A DNA stretch of 64,000 nucleotides from IMG/VR virus record IMGVR_UViG_3300047553_000733, positions 1 through 64,000 of that record; one strand, written 5' to 3'. Below, one piece after another: positions 20,474 through 60,538 of the stretch. Below the pieces are notes generated by a model. The model saw only the letters and a list, made by a program, of their open reading frames with translations, was not told the DNA's origin and ran no database searches. The number at the start of each line of letters is the position of its first letter. The first letter of the stretch is position 1. The DNA is from a virus. The translations under genes and the position numbers were made by a program.

Positions 20474-20474
20474 A

Positions 20475-20548: not shown

Positions 20549-20567
20549 CACAACACAAAGGAAAACA

Positions 20568-21163: not shown

Positions 21164-21164
21164 T

Positions 21165-21239: not shown

Positions 21240-21249
21240 AATTATTAAC

Positions 21250-21278: not shown

Positions 21279-21305
21279 ATATACTGGTTTGGGGATTTTT
21301 TATTT
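21259..21305 (+). terminator. Terminator after tRNA-Val, with promoter in its loop
   Basis: A 10-bp perfect stem ATCCCCAAAC/GTTTGGGGAT followed by a T run. RNA from upstream would form the stem and stop; RNA starting at the internal promoter lacks the left arm and would pass. Confidence 0.8.
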
Positions 21306-21445
21306 ATGCAAACACCTTGTATTAAAATATGTAAACTAAATCCCTACACACAAGCGTGTATAGCCTGTAAGCGGACTATAGAAGAAATACAGCGCTGGGC
21401 ATACATGACCCCTGCAGAACGTGAAAAAATAATGAAACAATTACT

Positions 21446-21455
<10 letters not shown>
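21306..21455 (+). CDS. DUF1289-type small cysteine protein
   Basis: 49 residues: PCIKICKLNPYTQACIACKR, then TIEEIQRWAYMTPAEREKIM. The Cys pattern and the W..MTP..ER end match the DUF1289 family of small bacterial proteins, probably metal-binding. The last ten bases overlap tRNA-Met. No ribosome site: the short leader comes from the terminator arm. Confidence 0.75.
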
Positions 21456-21523
<68 letters not shown>

Positions 21524-36493: not shown

Positions 36494-36719
36494 TACTCTT
36501 ATAGAGATATGGTCTCAACCTGACTGTGCTGGTTGTTTAAGTGCAAAAAGAATGCTACACTCTAAGAATATTCCTTATACTGAAAGAATGTTAGGAGTTG
36601 ATGCTACACTAGAAGATTTAATTATAAAGCTACCTGGTGCTAGAAGTGTTCCTCAAATATTTATAGATGGCCGACATTTAGGCGGTCTACCTGAACTAGC
36701 AAACTACCTAAACAAATGA
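36471..36719 (+). CDS. Glutaredoxin-like protein
   Basis: 82 residues. Active site WSQPDCAGCLSAKR (CxxC), then SVPQIFIDGRHLGG, the cis-Pro and GG motifs of glutaredoxins. It could reduce the class II ribonucleotide reductase at 40703. It overlaps the upstream exonuclease gene by 23 bases and the downstream one by 4. Confidence 0.85.
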   Translation: MQIKSNSDTLIEIWSQPDCAGCLSAKRMLHSKNIPYTERMLGVDATLEDLIIKLPGARSVPQIFIDGRHLGGLPELANYLNK

Positions 36720-40702: not shown

Positions 40703-42667
40703 ATGGCAGTTTCTACAAGAGCACAAGTCATCACACGTCGAACATATAACAGACCAGTTTCAGACGACGGTAAACAATTTGAAACCTGGCAAGAAACTGT
40801 TGCCCGAGTTATTGATCATCAGCAGTGGTTGTGGGAACGAGCAGTAGGCCGTGACCTAAATGACAGCGAATATGGCGAACTGTACGATCTAGAGCAGCTC
40901 ATGCTAGACAGAAAAGTTAGCATGAGTGGCAGAACACTGTGGCTGGGCGGTACAGATGTAGCTAAGCATCGTGAAGCTAGCCAATTTAATTGTAGCTTTA
41001 CTGAAGTCGAAACAGTATATGATGTTGTCGACGTGTTATGGCTATTGCTGCAAGGTTGCGGAGTAGGATTTAAGCCAGTAGTTGGTACATTAAATGGCTT
41101 TTCAAAACCAATCAAAAATATAAAAGTAGTTCGTAGTACACGAACTGCAAAGGGCGGCAATGAAGAAAATGTGGAATATTGGGAGCCTGATACCAAGATT
41201 TGGACAATCCAGGTCGGAGATAGTGCAGAGGCTTGGGCAAAGTCTGTGGGCAAGTTGCTTGCGGGTAAGTATCCTGCTGATACTCTGGTACTTGATTTTT
41301 CACAGCTTAGACCTGCTGGGGAAAGGTTAAAGGGCTATGGATGGATTAGTAGCGGCGATGAGGCGATTAGTGTGGCTTATACTGCTATTGCCACCATTCT
41401 TAATGGCAGGGCTGATAGTCTCCTCACACGGATGGACATTCTGGATATTGTTAATCATCTTGGGACAATTCTTAGCAGCCGCAGAAGTGCTGAAATAGCA
41501 CTTTTTGATTACGGGCAACCAGAGTGGGAAGAGTTTGCAGTAGCTAAAAAAGACTGGTGGTTATATAATAATAGTCATCGTCAACAAAGTAATAATAGTC
41601 TAGTTTTCCAAGAAAAACCTACTAAGGGCGACTTAGAAAAGATTTTTAACTTGATGTTAGAGGCGGGCGGTAGTGAGCCGGGCTTTATCAATGCAGTAGA
41701 AGCCCGTCGTCGTGCACCTTGGTATAAAGGCGCTAATCCTTGTGTAGAAATTCTACTCGGAAATAAATCGTTCTGCAATCTTACCGAAACTGATATTGCT
41801 AAGTTTAGGGGCGATACAGCTGGATTACATGAGGCAATCAGACTTGCAGCTCGTGCTAACTATCGTCAAACTTGTGTTAACCTAAAGGATGGTATTCTAC
41901 AAGAAGCGTGGCACTTAAACAACTACTTTTTGCGTTTGTGCGGAGTGGGGTTGACGGGTATTGCTAAGCGTCCTGATATGACTGGATATGATTACGAATA
42001 TCTTAAGCGTACAGCTACCGCAGCGGCAGTTGGTATGGCACAAGAACTTGGGCTACCAAGTCCCAAGAATATTACTTGTGTAAAACCTAGCGGCACATTG
42101 AGTAAAATCATGGATACAACTGAAGGCGTGCACAAGCCGCTTGGCAAGTATATATTCAACAACGTACAATTTAGCAGATTTGACCCAATCGTAGAAGTTG
42201 TTCGTGAAGCAGGTTATAAAGTTATTAATCATCCAACAGACCCTAGTGGCGTATTGATTACTTTTCCAGTTGAGTGGGCAGATGTACCATTCCATAAGGT
42301 TGCTGGTAAAGAAGTTAACTTAGACAGTGCAATCGAACAGCTAGAGAAGTACAAACTTATTCAAACCAGTTGGACTCAGCAAAATACTAGCGTAACTATT
42401 AGTTATGATCCTAGCGAAGTGCCACAAATTATTGACTGGCTATTAGACAACTGGGATTGTTATGTCGGCGTTAGTTTTATTTACAGAACTGATCCTACTA
42501 AAACAGCCAAAGACTTAGGGTATCTATATCTGCCACAAGAAGTTGTTGATGAGCAAACATATAGAGAGTATGTACAAAACTTACGCCCAGTAGATCTTGA
42601 AATGGCAAATAGCTTTGACGAGATTATGGGTGAAGACTGTGCAACAGGAGCTTGTCCAATAAAATGA
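40703..42667 (+). CDS. Class II (B12-dependent) ribonucleotide reductase
   Basis: 654 residues, ribosome site AAAGGATAAT. NPCVEI in the active-site region, a QTCVNLKDG segment, and a C-terminal CATGACP pair for re-reduction match monomeric adenosylcobalamin-dependent ribonucleotide reductases. It makes deoxynucleotides without oxygen but needs host B12. Glutaredoxin at 36471 may recycle it. ATGA overlap with the next gene. Confidence 0.85.
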   Translation: MAVSTRAQVITRRTYNRPVSDDGKQFETWQETVARVIDHQQWLWERAVGRDLNDSEYGELYDLEQLMLDRKVSMSGRTLWLGGTDVAKHREASQFNCSFTEVETVYDVVDVLWLLLQGCGVGFKPVVGTLNGFSKPIKNIKVVRSTRTAKGGNEENVEYWEPDTKIWTIQVGDSAEAWAKSVGKLLAGKYPADTLVLDFSQLRPAGERLKGYGWISSGDEAISVAYTAIATILNGRADSLLTRMDILDIVNHLGTILSSRRSAEIALFDYGQPEWEEFAVAKKDWWLYNNSHRQQSNNSLVFQEKPTKGDLEKIFNLMLEAGGSEPGFINAVEARRRAPWYKGANPCVEILLGNKSFCNLTETDIAKFRGDTAGLHEAIRLAARANYRQTCVNLKDGILQEAWHLNNYFLRLCGVGLTGIAKRPDMTGYDYEYLKRTATAAAVGMAQELGLPSPKNITCVKPSGTLSKIMDTTEGVHKPLGKYIFNNVQFSRFDPIVEVVREAGYKVINHPTDPSGVLITFPVEWADVPFHKVAGKEVNLDSAIEQLEKYKLIQTSWTQQNTSVTISYDPSEVPQIIDWLLDNWDCYVGVSFIYRTDPTKTAKDLGYLYLPQEVVDEQTYREYVQNLRPVDLEMANSFDEIMGEDCATGACPIK

Positions 42668-46937: not shown

Positions 46938-48722
46938 CTATCTCCTATATTGACTATCTACAAGTTCTTTGTGCCTAGCATCACTGGCACCGCTAAGCCC
47001 TCGCATAGCTCGTTGATTGTCTACAGTAGTTTGACCACGATAAATTTCTGTAGACTTATAAAAGGGCACGTCTTGTAAAATTGCCATATAGGTTTCAAAA
47101 CCTTGCGGCTGTCTAGCAATACTTGCTATACTAACTCCGCCAGCTAATTCGCTATCCTGTGCCTTTTGATTAATTGGTTTCGGTGGTGATTGATTACTAA
47201 CATTATCTAAGTTAGGTATTGTGCCCAGAAATTTTTCTAGCGGATTGGTCGGCCCTATTACTTGTTTTTGCTCAGTGTTTATTTCAGGCAATAGGTCTAT
47301 TTTTTGCTGCAGCGGTGTTGCAGCATATGTAGATTGAACAACAATACTTGATTGCTGTAATTGTTGTGGCGGGGGTACTAAAGAATAAATACTGCTAGTT
47401 TGCTGCTGCTGTGATTGATCTACTAAAACAGGTAGTATAACTGTACTAACTACCTGTTGAGGTTCTACACTTTTTATCGTCACAGGTTGTGGTAAATTCT
47501 GAGAAAAACTTTCCACATTACTGCCGCCCGTACTTGCTAAACTAGTATTATTTCGCTGATTTTGATTGCTGGGCTGCAAGGAAAAATCTTGACGAATTGT
47601 ATTTACAAAAGTTTGTTGTACACTAGTACTTTGCGAATTTTGTTGAATTTGCTGTTGTTCTTGTTGTTGCTGATTTTGTTTACTACTAAAAGATTCTGCA
47701 TCTTGTGTTGCTTTTTCAGCTTGTTTTGTAGCTTCTTGTATAGCTTGTTGAACTACTGAACGCTCTGTTCTACTAACCTGGGACTGTACGCCAGTAATAA
47801 TACTTAACAATGTACCAATGCTTGGTTGAGAGCTTTGTTTTTGAGTAACTTGTGGTGTAACTACAGCCATTACTGGAGTAGTAGTAGCTGTAACTGTAGC
47901 TGTGGCAGTAGTAGCCGTAGTTGTAGTTACTGGTTGTTGACCTACTGCACTAGTAACCACAGGTTCTGCAACTACTGTAGATTGTTGCGGGGTCGGGTCC
48001 GCTATTGCAATAGTTTTTGGTATTAATTTATTAAAAGCATCTAAATAACCGGGACAAGTTGGGGAGTACAGTGAGTTACTTACACATGGATCAACACTGT
48101 ACTTTAAGCTAAAGTTAATATTGTTTATTTCAGGACCATATGGGCCTGCCCAACCATTACTGTCACGACCAACAAAACCATAAGTTACATTTTTTAAGTC
48201 GTTGGCTATGAAAGGTGTTGTAAAAGTTTCACTAAAATTAAAAGTTGTCCAATTAAACTTATTAGTTAAATTGTAAGTATTATAGCTAACTACTTGATTA
48301 TTTTGATTAGTAAAGTGAGTATAAGCATACAAGTAGTCAGTTTGTCCATTATCCCAGCCGTTACCATTTTTAGCAGTAAAACTAAAATTATAACCATTTA
48401 CTCTTAAACCTGTGGCTGAAGGCAGGACACTAGCTACAGCTTGACTTTGGTATAGGTCCGTTTGGCCAAAAGAGAAATTTATATTATTACCTGGTCGCAC
48501 AATTGCATTTGGTCCGCAATATCCAGGATCACCCCACGTCCAGCATGTTAGACTGTTCTGATAAACGCCATTTGTCCAAGTACTTGGTCCACCTTGTTGC
48601 GTTTGTTGAACTATATTACCAGTAGTGTACTGTTGTCCAGGTACTAATTCTTGTGAATTAGAATAGCTTGAAGGCAACCATGCCAAGCAGAGCACCAAGA
48701 CCCATTTTCTTATAAGTGTCAT
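46938..48722 (-). CDS. Large secreted Gln/Thr-rich protein
   Basis: 594 residues with a signal peptide (MTLIRKWVLVLCLAWLPSSYS). Residues about 30-230 form a beta-rich domain (YQNSLTCWTWGDPGYCGPNA, KNGNGWDNGQTDYLYAYT, GRDSNGWAGPYGPEI) known from aquatic myophages of unknown function. The rest is Gln/Thr/Ser low complexity. It overlaps the upstream repeat gene by 65 bases. Possibly a cell-envelope or adhesin-type protein. Confidence 0.75.
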   Translation of the reverse strand: MTLIRKWVLVLCLAWLPSSYSNSQELVPGQQYTTGNIVQQTQQGGPSTWTNGVYQNSLTCWTWGDPGYCGPNAIVRPGNNINFSFGQTDLYQSQAVASVLPSATGLRVNGYNFSFTAKNGNGWDNGQTDYLYAYTHFTNQNNQVVSYNTYNLTNKFNWTTFNFSETFTTPFIANDLKNVTYGFVGRDSNGWAGPYGPEINNINFSLKYSVDPCVSNSLYSPTCPGYLDAFNKLIPKTIAIADPTPQQSTVVAEPVVTSAVGQQPVTTTTATTATATVTATTTPVMAVVTPQVTQKQSSQPSIGTLLSIITGVQSQVSRTERSVVQQAIQEATKQAEKATQDAESFSSKQNQQQQEQQQIQQNSQSTSVQQTFVNTIRQDFSLQPSNQNQRNNTSLASTGGSNVESFSQNLPQPVTIKSVEPQQVVSTVILPVLVDQSQQQQTSSIYSLVPPPQQLQQSSIVVQSTYAATPLQQKIDLLPEINTEQKQVIGPTNPLEKFLGTIPNLDNVSNQSPPKPINQKAQDSELAGGVSIASIARQPQGFETYMAILQDVPFYKSTEIYRGQTTVDNQRAMRGLSGASDARHKELVDSQYRR

Positions 48723-49911
48723 CTAACTTCTCCTTTACTGGGCTAGGAATTTTCTCTGGATTCTGTTCCCATGCTAGCTTAGCTTGTTCACCGATTTTAC
48801 CTTCATAAGGACAAGGAGTACCTGCTGCCATCATTGCATCCCAAACACGACGATCTTGACACATAGTAGCAACTGCTGCTACTTTCATACCCATATCAAA
48901 TAGGGTTTTACTCAACTTTAGTCGCTCGCAGTTTAAATCACGAACTGTTCCACCACTGCTAACACCAAATATTTGTGTTTGTACACTGCCACTAGTACCT
49001 GTACTACATAGATCTTGATTACCACCACTTAACATACTTGGTGCAATTGCTGTTGCTGGTGGTTGTATTACTCGCTGCGTAACCTCACTAGTATTTTGAT
49101 TTACATTGGTAACTGTGCCACTGTTAATATTTTGATTAACATTGGTATTTTGGTTTACATTATTATTAGTACTAGTGCTTGTATTAATATTACGATTAGT
49201 CATATCACCAGTATTAATATTTGTATTAGTATTCTGATTAGTATTAGTACTTGTTGCCGTACTAGTATTAATATTGCGATTAGTCATATCGCCAGTATTA
49301 ATATTATTGTTTGTACTAGTAGAATTACTGGTATTAATATTTCTGTATGTCATATCACCAGTATTAATATTGTTGTTTGTGTTTGTACTTGTACTTACAT
49401 TATTGTTATTATAAGTCATTGTACCACTATTAACATTATAGTTAGTATTTGTACTAGTACTGGTGCTAGTATTAATATTGCGATTAGTCATATCGCCAGT
49501 ATTAACATTGTTGTTTTGATTAACATTGGTACTTGTACTAGTATTAACATTATTGTTATTGTTGGTCATTGTGCCAGTATTAACATTGTTGTTATTATAA
49601 GTCATTGTACCACTATTAACATTGTTGTTGTTAATAGTTTGTGTACCACTATTAATATTATTGTTTGTATTAACATTAGTACTTGTACTTGTACTCGTGT
49701 TATTATTATTGTTTGTGTTTGTACTATTAACAGTACTAGTACTTGTGTTAGTACTAGTACTAGTACTTGTGTTATTACTATTAACAGTACTTGTACTAGT
49801 GCTAGTACTGTTAGTATCTACCAGTGTTTTGTTATCATAGGTAGTTGTAGTTTGCGCTAAGGCAGAACCTACAGCAAAGGTTAATAATATTACCAAATTC
49901 TTTACTTGCAT
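48658..49911 (-). CDS. Secreted Asn/Thr/Ser tandem-repeat protein
   Basis: 417 residues. Signal peptide (MQVKNLVILLTFAVGSALA), then about 250 residues of imperfect repeats of the type NINTGDMTNRNINTSTSTST and VNSGTMTYNNNNVNT, then a Cys-containing globular end (CERLKLSKTLFDMGMKVAAV ... VWDAMMAAGTPCPYEG). The repeats at the DNA level span about 49,080-49,850. Rich in Ser/Thr, so a possible glycosylation substrate; that link is speculative. GGGGG precedes the ATG. Confidence 0.75.
   Translation of the reverse strand: MQVKNLVILLTFAVGSALAQTTTTYDNKTLVDTNSTSTSTSTVNSNNTSTSTSTNTSTSTVNSTNTNNNNNTSTSTSTNVNTNNNINSGTQTINNNNVNSGTMTYNNNNVNTGTMTNNNNNVNTSTSTNVNQNNNVNTGDMTNRNINTSTSTSTNTNYNVNSGTMTYNNNNVSTSTNTNNNINTGDMTYRNINTSNSTSTNNNINTGDMTNRNINTSTATSTNTNQNTNTNINTGDMTNRNINTSTSTNNNVNQNTNVNQNINSGTVTNVNQNTSEVTQRVIQPPATAIAPSMLSGGNQDLCSTGTSGSVQTQIFGVSSGGTVRDLNCERLKLSKTLFDMGMKVAAVATMCQDRRVWDAMMAAGTPCPYEGKIGEQAKLAWEQNPEKIPSPVKEKLDDTYKKMGLGALLGMVAFKLF
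49080..49850. repeat. Imperfect tandem repeats in the Asn/Thr/Ser gene
   Basis: Short AT-rich units such as GTATTAATATT, often with GTACTAGTAC, repeat many times. They encode the low-complexity region and probably change length by slippage or recombination. Confidence 0.8.
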
Positions 49912-49926: not shown

Positions 49927-50541
49927 TTAAGCACCAAATACGTGTAGCGCGTGCTCGTAGTGTTTTTGTCTATCTTCTAATCCGATAGTACCGCCGTTAA
50001 TTCGTTTTGTTAATGTTACGATGTCACCACGATCTGCCCACTGATTTAGGTTATTTGTTTCCCAGAACCAGCATGCACTCTGTGCTGCACCCTCAAAAGT
50101 TTCCATATACTCACTAGCTTCTTCAGGGCTAATGCCTAAACTGGCTGCAAACCAGCTGTAATTGTCACGACCAGTTACCTGTATTAATCCGCGACCACAA
50201 AACCTCCAACCATCTCCGCTGGCCTCATCACCATTGCCCATGCGATTAGCATATACTCTGTTAGCAATCCTTTGTGGCTGCTTTTCGTATTGCTGCGCCA
50301 ATGCGTCCGTTTGAAAATACTTGGGAAAAGTTTTTCGTAGGGACTGCCACTTATAGTTTAGATTCTCTTTGATAAAAACAAAATTACCCGACTCATGAGC
50401 ACACTGTGCTAAAAAAGCTGCTAATCGTTGCGGAGTGTCAATTTGGTACTGCGGCAGCAATTGTTCCAGTGCATTGAACCAATATTGTGTATACTGATTT
50501 TTAGGTATAATTTGTTGTAAGTGTTGTAATTCTAATTCCAC
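49927..50541 (-). CDS. GH19 chitinase-fold endolysin
   Basis: 204 residues from GTG 50541, chosen for AAGGAG eight bases upstream and the overlap with the lipoprotein stop. AAFLAQCAHESGNFVFIKEN and GRGLIQVTGRDNYSWFA are glycoside hydrolase 19 motifs; the His-Glu pair is catalytic. Cuts peptidoglycan glycan strands in host lysis. No signal peptide, so it needs the holin. Confidence 0.9.
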   Translation of the reverse strand: MELELQHLQQIIPKNQYTQYWFNALEQLLPQYQIDTPQRLAAFLAQCAHESGNFVFIKENLNYKWQSLRKTFPKYFQTDALAQQYEKQPQRIANRVYANRMGNGDEASGDGWRFCGRGLIQVTGRDNYSWFAASLGISPEEASEYMETFEGAAQSACWFWETNNLNQWADRGDIVTLTKRINGGTIGLEDRQKHYEHALHVFGA

Positions 50542-50801
50542 TACTTTAACTCCTTGTAAATATTTTGTTGTGTTTTGTACCACTCTTGCCAGCCATGTAC
50601 TAACACACTACACTGATAGTGTTTTGTATAATTTTCTACAACTACTTTTGTTAAGTCTACTAAGCTGGCCTCTTTAGCTACTTCTTTAAGCTGCTCGCAT
50701 TGTTGCATTAACACATCAGGTGCTTGCGGAAATTTTTGAGTAACTGGCACAGTAGTACTGCAACCAGTTAGTAGTAATAAAATAAGGACAATATACTTCA
50801 T
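50541..50801 (-). CDS. Small lipoprotein, o-spanin-like
   Basis: 86 residues with a lipobox (ILLLLTGCS, Cys about residue 14). The short lipoprotein next to the endolysin and after a membrane-anchored coiled-coil protein is where outer-membrane spanins sit. No sequence proof of a spanin. Starts in an ATGA overlap. Confidence 0.6.
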   Translation of the reverse strand: MKYIVLILLLLTGCSTTVPVTQKFPQAPDVLMQQCEQLKEVAKEASLVDLTKVVVENYTKHYQCSVLVHGWQEWYKTQQNIYKELK

Positions 50802-51229
50802 GGTTTTGCTGCCTTATTTATTGTGGTAACTACCTCATCAGGTAATTTAGGACATTGTTCAATATACTTGACTACTTCTTGATTTTTTACAACTTCACGG
50901 TCTATATACTTTATAATGTCTTCACCACGCTCTTTTACGATTTGTTTTTTAGTGATTACTTTTTCAACTATTTTAACATTTTCCTCAGCGCTTTTAGCTT
51001 CTAAAGTTTTTACTTGTAGTTCTAAGGCGTGTGTACGCTTACGCCATGCATCATCATTGGCCTGCATTCCTAGCATGTACACACTTAAAAATACTATGGC
51101 TATAGACGCCCACTTAAAAGTGCTACTATATGGTAAAACCTTTAGTGTACTGGACACTAGATATAGTACAATGCCTAAAAAGAAAGTTAATTGAAATATC
51201 CACGAAGGTAAAAAATTAAATATCCACAC
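50798..51229 (-). CDS. Membrane-anchored coiled-coil protein, i-spanin-like
   Basis: 143 residues from a GTG start nine bases after GGAGG. Two N-terminal membrane helices (IFQLTFFLGIVLYLVSSTL; WASIAIVFLSVYMLGM) and a long charged helix (ELQVKTLEAKSAEENVKIVE). Together with the lipoprotein at 50541 it could bridge both membranes at lysis. Inference from layout. Confidence 0.55.
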   Translation of the reverse strand: MWIFNFLPSWIFQLTFFLGIVLYLVSSTLKVLPYSSTFKWASIAIVFLSVYMLGMQANDDAWRKRTHALELQVKTLEAKSAEENVKIVEKVITKKQIVKERGEDIIKYIDREVVKNQEVVKYIEQCPKLPDEVVTTINKAAKP

Positions 51230-51268: not shown

Positions 51269-51958
51269 TCACTCCACCAATTCTGGAAATAAGTCTTTAT
51301 GTATAAAATCATGTACCATTTCCTCTGTAAATCCTAAAGCCTGCAACACTTTAGGTGTGTGCGGGTTTTGTTTTTGTTGCTGACAGTAAAAATTTTGGTG
51401 CTTGGTGTAGTTATACTCACGCACTAAGTCATCATAACTTTTAGGTGGTCTGCTATACATTATATTATCCAAGTAGTACACCAACAACTCTTTACTTAAG
51501 TCTAATATTTCTACTAACTCAAACTCAGTATTAATGTTACCAGCTGCAACCATCTTATCACTAAATATCTTTTTAGCCCAGTCTGGCAGTACTCTAGGTT
51601 TTGACCACTCATAGCGGCTAACTTTATCACTAAAGTACTGATTAAACTTGTGCTCGGGATCAACAGGGCTAAAGTCTAAGAAAGCTCCTGTAACTTTATT
51701 TGGGCCAGCAACAAGGTCAAAACCAAATATTGGTGCACCGTCAAAAATATGCGGAAATACACATAGGTGCATCATCCACAGTTTCTTTGTTTCTGTAGCG
51801 TCTATTATGTCTAAGTGCATGCGTCTTGCAAGTGCACTACTATAAACTTGGTTAGTCCAGTTATAGGTGTTTGTTTCAGGCAGTAAAAAGGCCCGTGAGC
51901 TTAAAACTTTTTCAAGTTCTAGCGCATGGGCCTTTAACCTATTAAAGATTATACTCAT
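51269..51958 (-). CDS. Ferredoxin-dependent bilin reductase (PcyX/PcyA-like)
   Basis: 229 residues from ATG 51958 with AGGA before it. The core HLCVFPHIFDGAPIFGFDLV and GAFLDFSPVDP fits bilin reductases: an Asp (residue 95 from this start) matches the catalytic Asp of PcyA, and a His (residue 70) may match the PcyA His. The enzyme would reduce biliverdin with electrons from ferredoxin. Heme oxygenase is directly upstream, overlapping by 17 bases. PcyX is known from phage sequences; subtype is not proved here. Confidence 0.75.
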   Translation of the reverse strand: MSIIFNRLKAHALELEKVLSSRAFLLPETNTYNWTNQVYSSALARRMHLDIIDATETKKLWMMHLCVFPHIFDGAPIFGFDLVAGPNKVTGAFLDFSPVDPEHKFNQYFSDKVSRYEWSKPRVLPDWAKKIFSDKMVAAGNINTEFELVEILDLSKELLVYYLDNIMYSRPPKSYDDLVREYNYTKHQNFYCQQQKQNPHTPKVLQALGFTEEMVHDFIHKDLFPELVE

Positions 51959-52463
51959 CTGCAATCCTGCTAAACAGGTGCAAGGTTAACTCAAAGCATT
52001 TATTTGCTTCACTAGCCATGCTAACATCCAATTTAGTCCTTAATAGTTGTATTAATTCTTGACGATTTTGAAACTGGTACATTGCTCCGCTACCAGGTAC
52101 TTTGCTTTTTATTATCTGACCACCGTATAAATCACCCATATGTTTGGTATATATGTGTGCCCATAAACCGTGATCAGTTAAACACTTTACGTGTCTGCAG
52201 TATTCTGCGGTACTGTCAAATATAATTACTGGCTCGTCTAATTCCAGTAAGTCTTGCAGTATGTACTCACTGCGTTGTATGCCTGGCAAATCTTGTAACA
52301 AATGGTCTGCACAGTGCTCTAGTACTTGATATTGTAGCAACTGATTTGCTAAGTAAGTGGCGTATATGCCGCTAGTAATTTTTCCACCAAGTAGTAGTTG
52401 TGTAAACTTGTGATTTTCTGCAATTTCGTGGTTGTGATGTGTTAATTCTTTTAATGTTGACAT
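51942..52463 (-). CDS. Heme oxygenase (HO1-like)
   Basis: 173 residues, shorter than bacterial HO1. The heme-ligand region THHNHEIAENHKF lies at the N-terminus and AHIYTKHMGDLYGGQIIKSK matches the distal-helix GDLSGGQ motif. It opens heme to biliverdin, CO and iron. It overlaps hldD by 13 bases and the bilin reductase by 17, so the three are co-translated. Confidence 0.85.
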   Translation of the reverse strand: MSTLKELTHHNHEIAENHKFTQLLLGGKITSGIYATYLANQLLQYQVLEHCADHLLQDLPGIQRSEYILQDLLELDEPVIIFDSTAEYCRHVKCLTDHGLWAHIYTKHMGDLYGGQIIKSKVPGSGAMYQFQNRQELIQLLRTKLDVSMASEANKCFELTLHLFSRIADEYNL

Positions 52464-53311
52464 ACATACTCATGTGGTTGTATAAATTTATAGTCGCCTA
52501 TAAGATTTGTTCGCAGCTTTGTTAAATCTGCTTTGCTATAGTATTGATACTTTCCGCGCAACTCGTTGGGCATATCAATCCTGTGCGAGTTATCTGTGTA
52601 CAGTCTAGCAATTTCTAAAAAGCTTGTAGCTACACCAGACCCTAAATTGTAGATGCCTGGGTGTTTGTTGGTATAATTAACCATGACGTTTACTACATCG
52701 TCAACGCACACAAAGTCTCGTAGTATTTTTTCACTGCCATGAAACAGTGTAACTATACCTTCCTGCTCAACCTGTTCTTTAAACTTGCTGATTGGGCTTT
52801 GCTGTGCACCTTTGTGCTGTTCGCCACTGCCGTAGACATTGAATGGTCTGAATACCCAGGTATTTGGCATGCTGGCAACCACCTCACTCAACTGTTTGGA
52901 CACTGCATACGGATTGAGTGGATCTAGCTTGTCAGTTTCACAGAATGTTTCGCTATTGCCATATACACTAGCGCTGCTTGTGTATACCAGAGGTATTTGC
53001 TTCAGCTGACAAAATTCTGACCAGCTAAGGGTATGGGTATAGTTATAGTTAAGCAGTCGTTTGCCATCCGTTTCTGTGGTGCTGGAAATCCCGCCACAGT
53101 GAAATACCTTGCATATGTCCAGCTTTAGCAACTCAGTCCAGTTTATATTGTCTAAATCACGGTAGGCCAAAAACTTTAGTGTTTTTAGGGTCATCAACTT
53201 GCTGGCATCACTACAATCATCAACAATTAATATATTTTCTATGCCTTGCTTATTAAGCAACTTGACCAAGTTACTACCAATAAAACCAGCACCGCCTGTT
53301 ACGACATACAT
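52451..53311 (-). CDS. NAD-dependent epimerase, HldD-like
   Basis: 286 residues, Rossmann TGGAGFIGSNL at the N-terminus, HCGGISSTTETDGK, SSASVYGNS and NPYAVSKQ (Tyr-Lys catalytic pair). The GGxSSTTExDG pattern is that of ADP-L-glycero-D-manno-heptose 6-epimerase (HldD). Fits the heptose genes upstream. Overlaps both neighbours. Confidence 0.85.
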   Translation of the reverse strand: MYVVTGGAGFIGSNLVKLLNKQGIENILIVDDCSDASKLMTLKTLKFLAYRDLDNINWTELLKLDICKVFHCGGISSTTETDGKRLLNYNYTHTLSWSEFCQLKQIPLVYTSSASVYGNSETFCETDKLDPLNPYAVSKQLSEVVASMPNTWVFRPFNVYGSGEQHKGAQQSPISKFKEQVEQEGIVTLFHGSEKILRDFVCVDDVVNVMVNYTNKHPGIYNLGSGVATSFLEIARLYTDNSHRIDMPNELRGKYQYYSKADLTKLRTNLIGDYKFIQPHEYVCQH

Positions 53312-53601
53312 TGAAAATATTCCTTGTCACTGAGCGCTTTATCGTCTATGAATACATCATAGCTAGGCTTTTTCATATGTAATTTGGTGTATTTGCAACC
53401 CCACGCCTCAAGCTGCTGTTGTGTAAGTTTGGTATAGTCTTTGCCACTGTGACCGCCACGCGCAGTCCAGTAGTGAATCTCATGCCCACTATCAAACAAC
53501 TGATTTATGTGCTCAATACGATTTGTGTAAGGTCTGGCCAACTTATAGTTGCCGTTTGTGTTTGTGCAAATAGTGCCGTCAATATCAATATAGTAAATCA
53601 T
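53299..53601 (-). CDS. HAD-type phosphatase
   Basis: 100 residues. IDIDGTICTN is the HAD aspartate loop and FIDDKA the acidic motif, with YWTARGG between. It could supply the heptose-bisphosphate phosphatase step (GmhB role) in this operon; the protein is shorter than typical GmhB. ATGA overlap with the cupin. Confidence 0.75.
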   Translation of the reverse strand: MIYYIDIDGTICTNTNGNYKLARPYTNRIEHINQLFDSGHEIHYWTARGGHSGKDYTKLTQQQLEAWGCKYTKLHMKKPSYDVFIDDKALSDKEYFQCMS

Positions 53602-53954
53602 CGCTGACTGTCGCCGGGTTGAACTCTGTAATTATCCTCTACGCTGTCTGGAGTGCTCACCTCTAATACAGTGCCTGCCTCCAAACAAATAATTCTGTGT
53701 GGTACTAGCTTGGCGTTGTGGTGTACCCCGCCTTCGCCAATGATCTTCTTATGCACTTCTGCTGTGTTGGTGTCAATAGTTTCAATTTCGAACCTACCAC
53801 TTAACACATACCAAGTTTCCACTTTTTTACTATGAAAGTGCATTGAAAACTTAGCACCTTGATTAAAGTTTAAAAACTTACTGCAGTAGTGATCGTTTGT
53901 AGCCCATATCAATTCACTGCCCCAGCCCTTTTTAACTAATCCCTCTAATCTCAT
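53598..53954 (-). CDS. Cupin, sugar-phosphate isomerase-like
   Basis: 118 residues with cupin motifs (FSMHFHSKKVETWYVLSGRF, then HHNAKLVPHRI) close to the cupin domain of type II mannose-phosphate isomerases and ManC. Possibly acts on a sugar nucleotide intermediate. Lies between the heptose kinase and the phosphatase. Confidence 0.7.
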   Translation of the reverse strand: MRLEGLVKKGWGSELIWATNDHYCSKFLNFNQGAKFSMHFHSKKVETWYVLSGRFEIETIDTNTAEVHKKIIGEGGVHHNAKLVPHRIICLEAGTVLEVSTPDSVEDNYRVQPGDSQR

Positions 53955-54735
53955 CTATTTCTTTCAGTTTAGGCGCGTATACGCCAACATGTTTTACTGT
54001 TATGCCTGCTGCTAAGTTAGCAAACTTAATTGCCTGTTGCATACTGTTTGTATTCAAATACTCAAACACTAGTGCGGATAAAAATGTATCGCCTGCTCCG
54101 CATACGTCGGCTACTTGCACTGGATCACTGGAAAAGTACTCACCCAGATATGTAGTACCGCGGCCGCCCAGTGTAACAATAATATTATTGCCTACAGTGT
54201 GTGCTTGATTGCGTTCGTGCTCATTAATTTTAATAAACACATTTGGCTTATCAAACTGTTGCAAGTCTGTTTTCTTGGTATCTATGAATACTGGACAAGT
54301 GGCTTGATCTATAATTTCGTGTAGTAACTCATAGCTTACACAGCCCTTGTTGTAATCACTAACCACAATTGCGTTATATATGGGAGGTATTTTAGTTTCC
54401 AGCTCCAGCGGCTTGCTGTATGCGTCTTGATCTAGGCGCATTATGTGCTGACCACTTTTACTGTCAATAAATCTAGTTTTAACACTGCCTGGCAGTGTAA
54501 GCAGCTCAACTGTGCAATCAAGTGCCTGCAAGTTCTCGCGAACATTGGCAGCCATGCCCGGCTTTTCCAGCTCTGTTTGTGGTACAAATACTGGCACAGG
54601 TGCTTCAGGGCTCAGCCTGTTAATACTTCCAAAAACATACTTATCAACGCAAACGTCGCCGATTAATAAAATGTTCCAAGATTTGCGTTGTTGAGTCAGT
54701 AGTTGTTCTGCTATAAAATTCAAGTCGTTTTGCAT
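53932..54735 (-). CDS. Heptose 7-phosphate kinase (HldE kinase domain)
   Basis: 267 residues of the PfkB/ribokinase family: GDVCVDKYVFG, GMAANVRENL and the anion hole/base motif ADVCGAGDTFLSALV. Matches the N-terminal kinase half of HldE, which phosphorylates D-glycero-D-manno-heptose 7-phosphate. The adenylyltransferase half is a separate upstream gene overlapping by about 92 bases. Confidence 0.8.
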   Translation of the reverse strand: MQNDLNFIAEQLLTQQRKSWNILLIGDVCVDKYVFGSINRLSPEAPVPVFVPQTELEKPGMAANVRENLQALDCTVELLTLPGSVKTRFIDSKSGQHIMRLDQDAYSKPLELETKIPPIYNAIVVSDYNKGCVSYELLHEIIDQATCPVFIDTKKTDLQQFDKPNVFIKINEHERNQAHTVGNNIIVTLGGRGTTYLGEYFSSDPVQVADVCGAGDTFLSALVFEYLNTNSMQQAIKFANLAAGITVKHVGVYAPKLKEIDEIRGIS

Positions 54736-55051
54736 ATTCTGAACCGATTACAGGCTTGTTGCGATAGTCACTGCCTACAATCATTATGTCTGGTCTATAT
54801 TGTTTTACTAGTTGTGTTAGTTCTACATCACTGTCGAACACAACCACTTCATCAACCCAGCGTAAACTTTCTAATAGTTTTTTTCTGTTTTGTTGTGGAT
54901 TTAGTGGTCTGTCCGCACCTTTTAACTTTGCAACCCTGTCATCAGAGTCGATACCTACAAGCAAAAAAGTACCTAAACTTGCCGCGTGCTGCAACAAGTT
55001 CAGGTGACTTGGATGTAAAACGTCAAAAGTGCCGTTTACAAATATTTTCAT
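54644..55051 (-). CDS. Heptose 1-phosphate adenylyltransferase (HldE C-domain)
   Basis: 135 residues. Nucleotidyltransferase motifs: NGTFDVLHPSHLNLLQ (HxxH-type), GIDSDDRVAKLKG and SRTTTDSTTQIL. This is the C-terminal half of HldE as its own gene. It would make ADP-D-glycero-D-manno-heptose for the HldD-like epimerase. Confidence 0.8.
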   Translation of the reverse strand: MKIFVNGTFDVLHPSHLNLLQHAASLGTFLLVGIDSDDRVAKLKGADRPLNPQQNRKKLLESLRWVDEVVVFDSDVELTQLVKQYRPDIMIVGSDYRNKPVIGSEYAKRLEFYSRTTTDSTTQILEHFINRRRLR

Positions 55052-56829
55052 TGGTTTGCTATTGTTACCAGTTTACCATACTCTGGTAGATAAAGATATT
55101 CAATTTCGCTTTGTTGCAGTGTCCACAGTGCGTCTTCCAATGTTTCTACCAGCGGCTCTCCACCAAGGTTAAAGCTAGTATTGAATATAATTGGTATTCC
55201 AGTTTGCTTTTTGAACTCACTAATTAGTGCGTAATAATGAGGATTCTCATTAGTGTTAACTGTCTGAATACGACAAGTTCCATCTACATGTATAATGCTA
55301 GGAATCTTATCCTCAACTCCAGGTTGGCAGTTAACCGCATACATCATATGCGGGCTTGAGTTCATGCCGCGTAAATCAAACCACTGGTGCACATCTTCTT
55401 CTAAAATGCTACCTGCAAAAGGTCTAAAATATTCACGGTGCTTGATGCGGTTTACGTAATCTTTTCCGTCCACAAAAGTAGGGTCAAACATTAGTGAGCG
55501 GTTGCCCAGTGCTCTGGGGCCGTTTTCACTGCGACCTTGAAACATTGCAACAATATTCTTTTTACGCATTAGTTCTACAACTTTTGCATTATCGCAAGTT
55601 TCTACGGTACCACCATACTGCTCAGCAATAGCCTCTATTTGATCAGTATAATCATACTTTGGACCTAAGTAGATTTCTCGTGGATGTGTTTCTGTGGCCT
55701 GTGTAAGTTGATGATAACCCCACAGTGCAACACCAATTGCTGTGCCGCCATCATTGCTAACTGGCTCAACATACAGCTCAACGCCTTCATCACGCAGTGT
55801 TTTTAAGTAGTAGTAGTTTGCAACACAGTTTAGGGCATATCCGCCACTAAGTACTACTTGTTTTTTACCTGTTAATTCTACTGCACTCTTAATTAGCTGT
55901 AGTACCTGTGCTTGAGTTTGTGTTTGACAAGTATATGCTAAATCTCGCCTATTTTGACACTTGGTAACATCCTGATCTGTAATAGTTTGTAGTTCGGAGT
56001 ACATTGATGCATTAACTATTGCACCGTTAGGATATCTAGGTATAATAACATTTCTGTCACTGATTGGGGCTACTTGTGAATCTATAAATAGCTTGGGTAT
56101 TTGTTCGTTTGATTTGCCATATGGAAATAATCCCATAGTTTTTCCAGCTTCAATAGAACTAAACCCACAATATTCTGTTACTGCTTCATATACTTTAGTA
56201 ATACCAGCATTTCCACTTATAAACTCTATATGTGTGCCTTGCTCACCAAATTTTTCACTATTTTCGCTGTGGTTGTAGTGACCAACAATTGGCTCTTTGC
56301 AACCCAAGTGTTTGTAAATAGTTTTAAAGTTTGCTGGATAGCTACAATCAAATACTGTTTCTGTTTCCCACAATATAACCTGTTGATTATCAAACATAGC
56401 TGGATACATCGTACCAGCTCCGTCAACAATAACTGCTACAGCATCGTTAAATCCACTGCGATAAAATGCAATTGCTGCATGAATTTTATGGTGTGAATGG
56501 CTAAGATCAATTACTTGTGGATGATTTCGTAAGTCTGCTTTACGATCTATAAATCCCATTTTTCTGGCTAAACCAGTATAAACGTCGTCGCCAGTATAGT
56601 CTACTTTGCCTGCGGTATCATGCAGTGATTGTGTGTGCGATACAAATATAAAATCAAGCTTATCAGTATACTCTTTTACCTTCATCATGGTGGCATAGGG
56701 ACCACCATCATATTTTTGACGACTTAATCGTTCTTCTTCTAAGCTAAAAACAATTTTTCCGTCTTTTAATAGACAGGCACCAGCATTGTGCCCTCTAGCA
56801 ATTCCTAAAATATATCCTGTTTTATTCAT
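55048..56829 (-). CDS. O-carbamoyltransferase (NodU/TobZ family)
   Basis: 593 residues. N-terminal Kae1-like domain: LGIARGHNAGACLLKDGKIV and SHSHHKIHAAIAFYRS (metal His); C-terminal YrdC-like part with GRSENGPRALGNRSLMFD and FNTSFNLGGEPLVETLEDA. It transfers a carbamoyl group from carbamoyl phosphate onto a sugar hydroxyl. Coupled to the heptose genes, so a heptose-containing glycan is a likely acceptor. Confidence 0.9.
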   Translation of the reverse strand: MNKTGYILGIARGHNAGACLLKDGKIVFSLEEERLSRQKYDGGPYATMMKVKEYTDKLDFIFVSHTQSLHDTAGKVDYTGDDVYTGLARKMGFIDRKADLRNHPQVIDLSHSHHKIHAAIAFYRSGFNDAVAVIVDGAGTMYPAMFDNQQVILWETETVFDCSYPANFKTIYKHLGCKEPIVGHYNHSENSEKFGEQGTHIEFISGNAGITKVYEAVTEYCGFSSIEAGKTMGLFPYGKSNEQIPKLFIDSQVAPISDRNVIIPRYPNGAIVNASMYSELQTITDQDVTKCQNRRDLAYTCQTQTQAQVLQLIKSAVELTGKKQVVLSGGYALNCVANYYYLKTLRDEGVELYVEPVSNDGGTAIGVALWGYHQLTQATETHPREIYLGPKYDYTDQIEAIAEQYGGTVETCDNAKVVELMRKKNIVAMFQGRSENGPRALGNRSLMFDPTFVDGKDYVNRIKHREYFRPFAGSILEEDVHQWFDLRGMNSSPHMMYAVNCQPGVEDKIPSIIHVDGTCRIQTVNTNENPHYYALISEFKKQTGIPIIFNTSFNLGGEPLVETLEDALWTLQQSEIEYLYLPEYGKLVTIANQ

Positions 56830-56835
56830 AAATAA

Positions 56836-57864
56836 TTATACTAAACTTGTTTTCTTTGCAAATGGTGGTATGGAGGCGTTGTGCTGGCAGCTATCAGTAT
56901 GTACATGATTAGTTGCAACTAGCTCAGGTTTAGAATCTTTTTGTTTAGATTTACCTAGTTTATCAGTAACGCTCTTAATCATTTTATCAAAAGTTTTATC
57001 TTCCAAAACCATTAAGTACTCATTAGTTCTATCACTAACAAAATCCATAGTAATTCGTATTGGACTATAGATGCGCTTGTCTTTACCATTATCTATAATA
57101 GTAAAATCCTTATTATCTGGATAACTAATGTTTTCAGGATAAGTGGCACCTATAACAACAGTTGCTGGTTTACTTAAGGCATGAGCATAGTGCTGTCCAA
57201 CACTATCACAACCTAAAAAATAATCTGCTGCATTAATTATACCCATCCACTGCAGTAAATTCGCATTTGGTATTGCTGCAGCCATTTGCTTATCTGTTGG
57301 TATTTCTACATTGGACATCATAATTACAGCATAATGTTTTCCGAGCTCTTCTACTGTTCTGTATACATCTCGTAACTCAAAACTACGACCACTGGAATCA
57401 ATTATAAAATTACCGTCTTTTTGTACACCGCTACCAAAAGGTTGAAATACTACAGCTTTTTGTTTACCTAACTGTGACTTTACTTGTGATACTAGTGTGT
57501 GCCCATACGCTTGGTCAACTTTATTTATCTGTAGATTAAATGGTTTGGTTGCTGGAATATCTTTTAAATCATTTATCAATATATCAAATGCTTGGATTAA
57601 GTTGCACTTTTGATTAAAATATGCATTTAATCTATAAGGTTCAGGACTAATTATTTCTTTATCTTTTAATTTTTCTTCAAAAAGACTTTTATGACCCATT
57701 GGCCATACATTATTACGCAATACAGGACTAGCTAAAAATATTTCGTTCCAGGCCTCTGCAACAATAACAACGTCTTGATCTATGTTTTGCTTATACCACT
57801 CTAATGCTGGAATAGCACAGAGTACTCTGCCTATTCCACCATTAATAAAAAATGCTTTTTTCAT
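56836..57864 (-). CDS. Glycosyltransferase family 9, heptosyltransferase-like
   Basis: 342 residues. N-terminal INGGIGRVLCAIPALEWYK and later VFQPFGSG, DYFLGCDSVGQHYAHALSKP fit GT9 enzymes that transfer heptose from ADP-heptose. First gene of the operon, behind the promoter at 57903-57931. The C-terminus is long, Lys/His-rich. Acceptor unknown: LPS, or a protein as in GT9-type autotransporter heptosyltransferases. Confidence 0.75.
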   Translation of the reverse strand: MKKAFFINGGIGRVLCAIPALEWYKQNIDQDVVIVAEAWNEIFLASPVLRNNVWPMGHKSLFEEKLKDKEIISPEPYRLNAYFNQKCNLIQAFDILINDLKDIPATKPFNLQINKVDQAYGHTLVSQVKSQLGKQKAVVFQPFGSGVQKDGNFIIDSSGRSFELRDVYRTVEELGKHYAVIMMSNVEIPTDKQMAAAIPNANLLQWMGIINAADYFLGCDSVGQHYAHALSKPATVVIGATYPENISYPDNKDFTIIDNGKDKRIYSPIRITMDFVSDRTNEYLMVLEDKTFDKMIKSVTDKLGKSKQKDSKPELVATNHVHTDSCQHNASIPPFAKKTSLV

Positions 57865-58415: not shown

Positions 58416-59465
58416 TTATTTAAATGTTACTATTACTAGTCCAGCGCTACCACAAGCGCCATAGTTAGGGCCTTCATAACAACTAGACACATTACCTGGG
58501 CCGCCCAGTCCTGGTTTGCGGAATACATTATAGGCATTAGCACAGCATCCGCTATATTCATATCCACTAAATCCGCAACTGATTGCGCAAACTGTATGAT
58601 TTGGCATTACAGTATAGTTCCACTGACACATATAACAAATGCTATTACCACACTGCGCTACTGCCCATACCAACGAAGGAATTTTTGCTTCTACAGCTAT
58701 AGCATTACCGGAAGTAACTCCACCCACACATAAGCCATCATATCTGTATGTAGGCTTACTAAAGTAATTACTACACTGAAAATAACCAGTACACGCCATT
58801 AAATTAGATTGACTAGTTGCGTAGTGATGGCCGTTGCTTGGGTAGTAGCATCTTGCACCAACACCACATAAATTACCATATCCAGTTAAACCACCACAGC
58901 TTAGTATACAAGTATCGTTACTGCCACACACAAAGCTATTACAACCATCATAGGCACAATAACTATAACAATTGTTTTGTGTGGTGGCTATACCGCCACC
59001 AGCACATAGCGTATACTGCTGGCCAGCCTGTACATTCATTAATACATAAGTATACTCGCCATTTCCACCACTTTGTGCAAAAGAGCAACAAGCGCCCCAG
59101 CTACACGCACTACCATTGCCGCCAGCACCCCAAATTTGAAACTGTGCCTGTGTAACGCCAGCTGGCACTGTCCATAAACAGCAGCAACCACCAGCGGTAC
59201 TGTAATTCGTAGTTTCTCCAACAGTTATAACTCCAGCGGCACCAGTCATCAACTGATTTGGGCTAGGCAGATTGTACCCACCATAAAAAGTAGTCCAGTT
59301 ACGACGCACACCATTAGCAGCAGACAATGCTGCTGCTGCGTTGGTAGTTGCACTGTCTACTTGAGTTTTTAGCGTATTTAGGTCAGCATCTCCAAAGTCA
59401 TTAGAATTATTAATTCTAATATTTTTCTTTACGGCCAACTCTAAAATATCATTAATTTTTGACAT
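58416..59465 (-). CDS. Cysteine- and glycine-rich tail adhesin candidate (1)
   Basis: 349 residues. A short helical N-terminus, then a domain starting CCCLWTVPAGVTQAQFQIWGAG, the opening of glycine-rich phage receptor-binding domains. About 27 Cys by eye, often in CC or CxxC. Ends GPNYGACGSAGLVIVTFK. Probably a tip or adhesin protein; the cysteines may bind metal or form disulfides. Paralog at 59498. Confidence 0.7.
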   Translation of the reverse strand: MSKINDILELAVKKNIRINNSNDFGDADLNTLKTQVDSATTNAAAALSAANGVRRNWTTFYGGYNLPSPNQLMTGAAGVITVGETTNYSTAGGCCCLWTVPAGVTQAQFQIWGAGGNGSACSWGACCSFAQSGGNGEYTYVLMNVQAGQQYTLCAGGGIATTQNNCYSYCAYDGCNSFVCGSNDTCILSCGGLTGYGNLCGVGARCYYPSNGHHYATSQSNLMACTGYFQCSNYFSKPTYRYDGLCVGGVTSGNAIAVEAKIPSLVWAVAQCGNSICYMCQWNYTVMPNHTVCAISCGFSGYEYSGCCANAYNVFRKPGLGGPGNVSSCYEGPNYGACGSAGLVIVTFK

Positions 59466-59497: not shown

Positions 59498-60538
59498 TTA
59501 GCACCAGCTAACCTTAACCATGCCCATACGGCCCCAATCACCACATAGTGAAGTACAGCCGCCAAATGCTACACTAGCCGTGCCACCCATACCAGGGAAT
59601 GTCCAAATTGGCGTACCATTTTGTGAATTTGTAGCTCCACAGCAAGCAGCTTGATAAAACGGGTTACAAGTTTGGCCATTATTAAACACAAGACAGCAGC
59701 AAGCTACTTGCGACTTACCGTCCACAGGACTTACTAGTGGAGGGTGAATATGGAACCCATAGATATTGGTATCCATGCAGGTTGCTCCATGTATACTATT
59801 ATGACCAAAAGGTGTACCATAAAAAGTTACTTCTGTATCATTAAATACTGGAATACAGCCACAAGTTGCGCAACTATTATCATTACAATAATAACTAGTA
59901 CCACAAATACATCCACCACTGCTAGTGCAAGTAGGATTTTGCCAGCGGCAGCACATACTAGTACCGCAAAGCTGTGTTCTTTGTTGACACATTCTGCGAA
60001 TAAGATTGTGACAACCACCATTTGCACAGAAATTGGTTAGCCCATATCCTGTTACTGATGATGGGCTACCTTGATATGTAGCATTTAGTGTGCAGCACAG
60101 TCTGTTTGCATCTGCACAACCGGCTGTTAATACATACTGACAGCCAGGGGTTACGGGAATTATTGTGGTAGCATATGCGCCTGTTGCACCAAATGGTGCA
60201 CCGCCACAACACATACCAGCACCACCTTGTGCCCCTGGGCCCCAGATTTCAAACTTTGCAAAGCTAACTCCGCTTGGAACAGTCCAAGTGCAGCTAGCTC
60301 CACATCGCTTAAAACTACTAGTATCACATACTTGCAGTGTACCAGTACACTGTGTTAAGTGCGGAAAAATACATTTCCAACACTCTGGATTACAGGCATG
60401 ACAAGCCAGCACGTTTTTAATTGAAGTAAAAGTACCAGCTGCTGTAAAAGTAGCCTCGGCCATTGCACTAGTTGCAACGGCCTTGGCTTTTGTTCCGACA
60501 GCTAACAAACTGCCATTTAAATCTACTATATTAAACAT
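59498..60538 (-). CDS. Cysteine- and glycine-rich tail adhesin candidate (2)
   Basis: 346 residues, 37 Cys by eye (over 10 percent). CTWTVPSGVSFAKFEIWGPG opens the same glycine-rich domain as in the neighbour, and GRMGMVKVSWC closes it. N-terminal ACHACNPECWKC adds a dense Cys block. Tail adhesin by position and resemblance; receptor unknown. Confidence 0.7.
   Translation of the reverse strand: MFNIVDLNGSLLAVGTKAKAVATSAMAEATFTAAGTFTSIKNVLACHACNPECWKCIFPHLTQCTGTLQVCDTSSFKRCGASCTWTVPSGVSFAKFEIWGPGAQGGAGMCCGGAPFGATGAYATTIIPVTPGCQYVLTAGCADANRLCCTLNATYQGSPSSVTGYGLTNFCANGGCHNLIRRMCQQRTQLCGTSMCCRWQNPTCTSSGGCICGTSYYCNDNSCATCGCIPVFNDTEVTFYGTPFGHNSIHGATCMDTNIYGFHIHPPLVSPVDGKSQVACCCLVFNNGQTCNPFYQAACCGATNSQNGTPIWTFPGMGGTASVAFGGCTSLCGDWGRMGMVKVSWC

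What the first reader, a model, noticed from the sequence alone, without database searches (positions are those of the whole stretch)
51269..52463. Heme oxygenase plus bilin reductase in a phage operon
Overlapping genes for heme opening and bilin reduction form a minimal heme-to-bilin pathway. Known: cyanophage ho1/pebS and PcyX-type reductases from uncultured aquatic phages. Here the genes sit at the end of a sugar-modification operon and the host may not be a cyanobacterium, so the pigment's purpose (phytochrome chromophore, iron release, redox) is open.
Basis: partly seen in the sequence, partly recalled or inferred. Interest (0 to 1): 0.78.

Follow-up and report, generated by a model that had tools for sequence, protein, structure and literature searches.

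The report
Phage heme-to-bilin enzyme pair
A T5-like phage carries two overlapping genes that should open heme and turn it into a pink bile pigment; the pair is a known phage gene set found here in a different phage lineage that probably does not infect cyanobacteria, and why the phage needs it is still unknown.

Summary
Window 51942-52463(-) is a short (173 aa) heme oxygenase. Window 51269-51958(-) is a ferredoxin-dependent bilin reductase of the PcyX type; it overlaps hemO by 17 bp. Both keep the expected catalytic residues, fold confidently onto solved relatives, and evolve under purifying selection. The PcyX-specific Asp (Asp55; window Asp50) is present, which predicts phycoerythrobilin (PEB) rather than phycocyanobilin; no product was tested. 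Phage hemO-pcyX cassettes are already published (pelagimyophages; a freshwater peat-bog phage, CB_2). New here: the phage is T5-like, its PcyX falls outside the subclade holding characterised PcyX, and the pair is an optional module parked just before the Rz-Rz1-endolysin genes (14 of 38 kin have it, 19 lack it, 5 cannot be scored). The pair is independent of the sugar operon: relatives keep it with no sugar genes beside it, and other phages keep the sugar genes without it. Related pairs elsewhere sit behind DnaK-Hsp20-ClpS or beside 2OG-Fe(II) oxygenases. No ferredoxin, phytochrome, GAF, phycobilisome-type globin or AlaS was found in the 102-kb record. My preferred, unproven purpose is heme breakdown for iron, with the reductase clearing biliverdin. 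Interest is moderate: a new setting for a known kind of system.

The parts
51942..52463 (-). hemO: biliverdin-producing-type heme oxygenase, 173 aa (short form); proximal His12, Gly110-Asp111, Gly114-Gly115
   Evidence: PF01126 1.2e-14; invariant residues in 16 rows; AlphaFold2 mean pLDDT 94.9, Foldseek to HO-1/HO-2/HmuO
51269..51958 (-). pcyX: ferredoxin-dependent bilin reductase, PcyX type, 229 aa; Asp50 (=PcyX Asp55 / PcyA Glu76), His64 (=PcyA His88), Asp81 (=PcyA Asp105)
   Evidence: PF05996 7.9e-21; 5owg PcyX 3.3e-49 against PcyA 2.6e-15; tree and residues; model pLDDT 92.1, Foldseek
51942..51958 (-). 17-bp overlap of hemO end and pcyX start
   Evidence: overlap kept in 120 of 129 loci that hold both genes
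50798..51229 (-). 143-aa protein in the Rz position, directly downstream; anchors the conserved lysis junction (Rz assignment inferred from position and N-terminal hydrophobic segment)
   Evidence: phrog_4952 'signal peptide motif'; no Pfam match over a cut-off; same place in kin
50541..50801 (-). Rz1/LysC-like lipoprotein spanin
   Evidence: PF23793 6.7e-06, just under cut-off; phrog_456 Rz-like spanin 1.8e-06
49927..50583 (-). GH19-type endolysin
   Evidence: phrog_181 endolysin 5.2e-78
52451..53311 (-). NAD-dependent epimerase of the adjacent sugar operon; neighbour, not part of the bilin pathway
   Evidence: PF01370 1.9e-31
53299..57864 (-). rest of the sugar operon: HAD-like 53299-53601, cupin 53598-53954, HldE-N-like PfkB kinase 53932-54735, HldE-C-like cytidylyltransferase 54644-55051, carbamoyltransferase 55048-56829, GT9-like 56836-57864; neighbour, separable from the pair
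   Evidence: separability

Best explanation
A functional two-enzyme phage cassette. HemO (inferred active) opens heme to biliverdin IXalpha, CO and Fe(II). PcyX (inferred active, using host ferredoxin) reduces biliverdin by four electrons to phycoerythrobilin. The two are made together from overlapping genes as an optional module at the lysis junction of a T5-like phage of a Gram-negative, probably non-cyanobacterial host. Shown here: gene identity, residues, fold prediction, selection, pairing and position. Inferred: activity, product, host and purpose. For purpose I commit, at about 0.4, to breakdown of host heme to free iron and remove free heme during infection, with PcyX pulling the reaction by clearing biliverdin.
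For: HMM, PDB and fold matches. 90 of 90 dereplicated phage reductases have Asp at window 50, His at 64 and Asp at 81; the five PcyA references have Glu at the first. Purifying selection on both genes. hemO adjacent to the reductase in 123 of 129 loci holding both, overlapping in 120; the other 6 have 556-1487 bp between them. Same slot before the endolysin in 13 of 14 kin that carry the pair. T5-like kinship. For the iron reading: no bilin acceptor or ferredoxin found in the record, and 2OG-Fe(II) oxygenases enriched near the pair, 28 of 614 near ORFs against 6 of 748 far ORFs. A role in iron supply is discussed in Wegner 2024, citing earlier work.
Against: No activity, product or expression data. 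Iron release alone does not explain why the PcyX-specific Asp is kept in 90 of 90 sequences: that suggests the bilin itself, or at least this chemistry, is under selection. 2OG oxygenases lie within 3 kb in only 20 of 80 loci, and the rows are related; none is within the window's operon. HxH iron motifs are not enriched in this phage's tail proteins. The hemO sequence match to solved enzymes is weak (best 2.4e-07) and the protein is about 30-60 residues shorter than the solved ones.
Confidence: 0.7

Rival explanations
1. Stress or antioxidant role: the pair acts like animal heme oxygenase-1 plus biliverdin reductase, removing pro-oxidant free heme late in infection and leaving a reduced, radical-scavenging bilin.
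For: In T4-like relatives the pair lies behind chaperone genes: clpS in 23, hsp20 in 21 and dnaK in 19 of 80 dereplicated loci. The window phage has a rubrerythrin and a glutaredoxin.
Against: No chaperone genes beside the pair in the window lineage; those relatives form part of one PcyX subclade, so the association may be a single event. The HO-1/biliverdin-reductase parallel is recalled, not tested.
Confidence: 0.22
2. Chromophore role: the bilin is made for a bilin-binding protein of the host (phytochrome, globin-type BBAG) or of the virion.
For: PcyX-specific Asp kept in 90 of 90. Freshwater CB_2 phage PcyA product assembles with phytochrome Cph1 (Wegner 2024, read); bilin-binding globins accompany bacterial pre-PcyA (PMC10151467, passages). 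Tail-like proteins with 7.7-10.7% Cys, possible thioether sites, lie nearby.
Against: No PHY, GAF or phycobilisome-type globin in the record. Cys-rich proteins follow the GT9-carbamoyltransferase genes, not the pair. Host unknown.
Confidence: 0.22
3. Cyanophage-like light-harvesting support: PEB for host phycobilisomes.
For: PEB is a phycobilisome chromophore, and PcyX supplies it to phycobilisomes when put into Synechococcus 7942 (PMC13197396, abstract and passages).
Against: T5-like phage genes; reductase outside the PcyA references, which include four cyanophage enzymes; no phycobilisome-type globin. Photosystem genes were not specifically searched for.
Confidence: 0.03
4. Passenger or decaying genes without function.
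For: Patchy: 19 of 38 kin loci lack the pair with at least 3 kb upstream visible.
Against: Intact frames, conserved residues, dN/dS 0.05-0.29, near-universal pairing.
Confidence: 0.03

Closest known systems
Phage hemO-pcyX cassette (pelagiphage Mosig EXVC030M; marine metagenomic PcyX_EBK42635, PDB 5owg)
   Same: Two overlapping genes in the same order; PF01126 plus PF05996; PcyX-specific Asp present; reductase 44% identical to the Mosig protein over 86% of the length.
   Different: Mosig is T4-like (Gp23 hit) with the pair beside 2OG oxygenases and a putative ferrochelatase and before neck genes; the window phage is T5-like with the pair before lysis genes; window PcyX lies outside the supported 38-row subclade (100/99) that holds Mosig and 5owg.
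CB_2 freshwater phage vHemO-vPcyA (-valaS) (Wegner 2024)
   Same: Phage hemO plus FDBR; host probably not cyanobacterial (paper text).
   Different: CB_2 enzyme lacks Asp55 and makes PCB; the window enzyme has the Asp. CB_2 carries valaS; no AlaS hit in this record.
Cyanophage PebS and PcyA
   Same: PF05996; cyanophages also carry a heme oxygenase.
   Different: In P-SSM2 the two genes are far apart (hemO near 213.7 kb, reductase near 51.1 kb); cyanophage PcyA has Glu at the PcyX Asp in four of four examined, and PebS does not align there.

Membership tests
Ferredoxin-dependent bilin reductase (PF05996) | Family profile and alpha/beta/alpha FDBR fold | tested here: met
   75.2 bits against cut-off 31; Foldseek E 9.7e-13 to PcyA 2g18 and 3.0e-11 to PcyX 5owg
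PcyX | Catalytic Asp55 | tested here: met
   Window Asp50 aligns with residue 55 of the Mosig protein and Glu76 of Synechocystis PcyA
PcyX | Phylogenetic placement with PcyX, apart from PcyA and PebS | tested here: met
   91-row clade of phage rows plus 5owg, support 98/97 against 5 PcyA references and 1 PebS; long branches, few references, alphaproteobacterial PcyA and CB_2 not included, bootstrap not fully settled
PcyX | Four-electron reduction of biliverdin to PEB | not testable with these tools
   Needs enzyme assay
PcyA | Glu76 | tested here: not met
   Asp in the window and in all 90 phage rows
Heme oxygenase, HO-1 type (PF01126) | Profile, all-helical fold | tested here: met
   55 bits against cut-off 23; model pLDDT 94.9; Foldseek to HO-1, HO-2, HmuO, TMq mostly 0.81-0.86
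Heme oxygenase, HO-1 type (PF01126) | Proximal His and distal Gly-Asp..Gly-Gly motif (residue roles recalled) | tested here: met
   His12, Gly110, Asp111, Gly114, Gly115 invariant in 16 of 16 rows
Heme oxygenase, HO-1 type (PF01126) | Heme to biliverdin IXalpha | not testable with these tools
   Needs assay
Phage hemO-pcyX(-alaS) cassette | Adjacent hemO and FDBR | tested here: met
   17-bp overlap
Phage hemO-pcyX(-alaS) cassette | alaS third gene | tested here: not met
   No TIGR01821 match in the 102,184-base record; the paper also describes two-gene and truncated loci, so this is not a required feature
T5-like phage | T5-type replication and head genes | tested here: met
   DNA polymerase about 49%, terminase 47-50%, capsid about 35-37% identity to T5-like phages ('T5-like' as a label for those phages is recalled); two-gene NAD ligase (as a T5 trait, recalled)

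The most novel reading that the evidence does not exclude
Phage bilin synthesis has little to do with light harvesting: across T4-like and T5-like phages of heterotrophic bacteria, HemO-PcyX is a heme-stress and iron module deployed with chaperone or late lysis genes, and the PEB it makes is a phage-specific effector (antioxidant, photosensitiser or ligand of a host or virion protein) whose identity is under selection.
Probability: 0.2. Interest if true: 0.75.

Novelty: new member of a known kind. Interest (0 to 1): 0.42.

Why it matters
Why phages of presumably heterotrophic bacteria make a light-harvesting pigment is an open question stated in print (Wegner 2024: 'still enigmatic'). The presence/absence pairs among close kin make natural controls.

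Tried and rejected
Sugar-operon link: rejected. Relatives carry the pair with no sugar genes directly upstream (L030, L031, L033-L036, L049, L050, L059, L062, L101; some of these contigs are short upstream), and of 40 loci found with the HldE-like kinase only 10 have the pair.

Cys-rich tail proteins as the bilin acceptor: not supported. Of the 40 kinase loci, Cys-rich ORFs (5% or more, at least 150 aa) occur in 15 of 17 with both the GT9-like and carbamoyltransferase genes, against 2 of 23 without both, irrespective of hemO-pcyX (four apparent near-duplicate pairs not removed).

Iron packed in tails through HxH motifs: no enrichment. Phage ferredoxin as electron donor: no Fer2 match, and no plausible motif in a six-frame scan.

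Genuine bacterial PcyX: the one genome scan gave 4 loci, all in contigs with phage-like genes inside metagenome bins; that scan used two peptide patterns, so its reach is limited. Host from close isolates: no megablast match of 22 kb to 50,697 phage records; class II RNR matched roseophages and environmental phages at about 60-70%, not decisive. Promoters and terminators: at or near shuffle background, uninformative. The two primary PcyX papers (10.1111/febs.14341, 10.1111/1462-2920.13290) are not held. Print searches for the chaperone-operon context, a T5-like carrier and freshwater cases returned nothing describing them in the listings I saw; only this open-licence library was searched.

Full report
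What is there. Two same-strand genes, hemO (51942-52463) and a bilin reductase (51269-51958), overlap by 17 bp. hemO matches Pfam Heme_oxygenase at 1.2e-14, and the reductase matches Fe_bilin_red at 7.9e-21, both over the curated cut-offs. The best solved relative of the reductase is PcyX 5owg (3.3e-49), far ahead of PcyA (2.6e-15). hemO is only distantly like solved enzymes by sequence (2.4e-07), but its model (mean pLDDT 94.9) matches rat HO-1, human HO-2 and HmuO, TMq mostly 0.81-0.86. The reductase model (92.1) matches PcyA and PcyX.

Residues. In hemO, His12, Gly110, Asp111, Gly114 and Gly115 are invariant in all 16 aligned phage rows; that these are the proximal His and the distal-pocket motif of HO-1 is from general knowledge. 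In the reductase, window Asp50 aligns with residue 55 of the Mosig protein and Glu76 of Synechocystis PcyA. Wegner 2024 names Asp55 as the PcyX-specific catalytic residue, whose absence in CB_2 goes with a PCB product. Across 90 dereplicated phage reductases, Asp50, His64 (PcyA His88) and Asp81 (PcyA Asp105) are present in 90 of 90; five PcyA references have Glu at the first position, and PebS does not align there. So I predict PEB, untested. The 90 come from 126 complete sequences reduced to 91 at 95% identity, with one cyanophage PcyA then moved to the references; nearly all were found by similarity to the window or to alignment A1, so the sample is biased towards PcyX.

Tree. All 90 phage rows and 5owg form one clade (98/97) apart from five PcyA references and PebS; Mosig and 5owg sit in a supported 38-row subclade (100/99) that does not include the window; the window pairs with L124 (100/100). 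Caveats: long reference branches, bootstrap not quite settled, no alphaproteobacterial PcyA and no CB_2.

Selection and pairing. NG86 dN/dS in ten pairs per gene is 0.06-0.29 for hemO and 0.05-0.28 for pcyX, several with near-saturated dS. Of 131 loci with a reductase and 131 with hemO, 129 hold both; 123 of these are adjacent and 120 overlap; six have 556-1487 bp between. Two of the genes without partner are cut at a contig end (L037, L071); the other two are named cyanophage stretches (L118, L119). Several loci are overlapping cuts of one contig, so these counts are not independent. In L172 and L186 the gene between is a 2OG-Fe(II) oxygenase.

The phage. The window is part of a 102,184-base linear IMG/VR record. 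Its DNA polymerase (about 49%), terminase (47-50%) and capsid protein (about 35-37%) match T5-like phages of Vibrio, Salmonella, Aeromonas and others. A two-gene NAD ligase fits T5, from general knowledge. Spanin and endolysin genes and an HldE-like sugar operon indicate a Gram-negative host. No close isolate exists in the collection searched. A cyanobacterial host is unlikely but not excluded.

Position. I fetched 80 loci through the endolysin (best 80 of at least 598) and took as kin the 38 with RNR at 80% or PhoH at 65% identity or more. Fourteen carry the pair, 19 lack it with at least 3 kb upstream visible, and five are too short to tell; five near-identical pairs were not removed. In 13 of the 14, pcyX ends 670-725 bp before the endolysin match, that is, directly before the two spanin-position genes; L049 is the exception (4617 bp). 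What lies directly upstream varies: the sugar operon (window, L003, L043, L064), two 2OG-Fe(II) oxygenases (L049, L050), or tail-fibre and tail-chaperone genes (L033, L059, L062, L101). The pair is therefore an optional module at a fixed junction and does not belong to the sugar pathway.

Wider context. Carriers include T4-like records (Gp23 capsid over the cut-off in 8 of 39 records tested, among them 217, 267, 278 and 353 kb) and another T5-like one (terminase 78% identical in L130's record). Most of the 39 are fragments, so a missing marker says little. Of 89 dereplicated loci with both genes, 80 have at least 1.5 kb upstream. Within 3 kb of the pair, 2OG-Fe(II) oxygenases occur in 20 of 80, clpS in 23, hsp20 in 21 and dnaK in 19; Pfam confirms examples of each. 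2OG genes make up 28 of 614 near ORFs against 6 of 748 far ORFs, Fisher p 1.1e-5, but rows are related, the profiles are home-made from cassette neighbours, and that selection favours the near set.

What is missing. The record gives no Fer2 ferredoxin, no phycobilisome-type globin, no PHY, no GAF and no AlaS. Electrons must come from the host, and any bilin acceptor is host-encoded or of an unknown type. The record may be incomplete.

Mechanism. HemO: heme to biliverdin IXalpha, CO and Fe(II). PcyX: biliverdin to PEB with reduced ferredoxin. Both steps are inferred from family knowledge and residues. Purpose: I put iron release and heme removal first (about 0.4), with PcyX clearing biliverdin; antioxidant and chromophore roles follow at about 0.22 each. 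The invariant PcyX Asp counts against a pure iron role, and the missing acceptor counts against a chromophore role.

Known or new. The cassette is known: marine hemO-pcyX, Mosig, and CB_2 with valaS (Wegner 2024, PMC11480375; parts 1-3 of 8 and a term search read). That paper reports its contigs clustering with myovirus-type pelagiphages and says PcyX had been found only in marine viruses. I could not establish the habitat of the window. A T5-like carrier, the lysis-junction slot and the DnaK-Hsp20-ClpS-HemO-PcyX arrangement did not appear in my searches (listings only, open-licence library). Filed as a new member of a known kind.

Noticed in passing
window 58416-59465 and 59498-60538 (-); also L003, L043, L070, L080, L213-L216, L219-L223, L225, L226, L229, L231, L234, L237: Glycine-rich tail-like proteins with 7.7% and 10.7% cysteine (record median about 1%). 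Such Cys-rich ORFs occur in 15 of 17 kinase-bearing loci that also have the GT9-like and carbamoyltransferase genes, against 2 of 23 without both: a possible tail-protein heptosylation and carbamoylation system acting on Cys-rich proteins.
   Followed up: partly
L120, L162, L164, L168, L170, L177, L178, L182, L188, L197 and others (19 loci with dnaK): Phage operon dnaK-hsp20-clpS-hemO-pcyX, including in a 353-kb T4-like record.
   Followed up: partly
L025, L031, L036, L049, L050, L120, L172, L186: 2OG-Fe(II) oxygenase genes beside, and in L172 and L186 between, hemO and pcyX.
   Followed up: partly
record G000 92739-94661 (-), outside the window (L027:8939-10861): Prohead protease and major capsid protein in one 640-aa reading frame (PF04586 plus PF05065); several Vibrio phage matches annotate protease and capsid as separate genes.
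   Followed up: no
window 20568-21020 and 36441-36719 (+): Rubrerythrin and glutaredoxin genes: possible oxidative-stress functions in the same phage.
   Followed up: no
window 40703-42667 (+): RNR with class II (B12-dependent) domain matches, closest to an environmental phage and to roseophage RNRs rather than to T5-like phages.
   Followed up: no
window 12112-21523 (+): Cluster of 20 tRNA calls, one with a four-base anticodon call.
   Followed up: no
window 48658-49911 (-): Low-complexity Asn/Ser/Thr repeat protein (phrog_20531) just after the endolysin, with similar proteins at that place in kin loci.
   Followed up: no
L120-L123: Bacterial metagenome bins (titled Halobacteroidaceae, Pirellulales, Neomarinimicrobiota, Rickettsiales) contain phage-like contigs carrying hemO-pcyX, one of 335 kb: likely binning errors.
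   Followed up: partly
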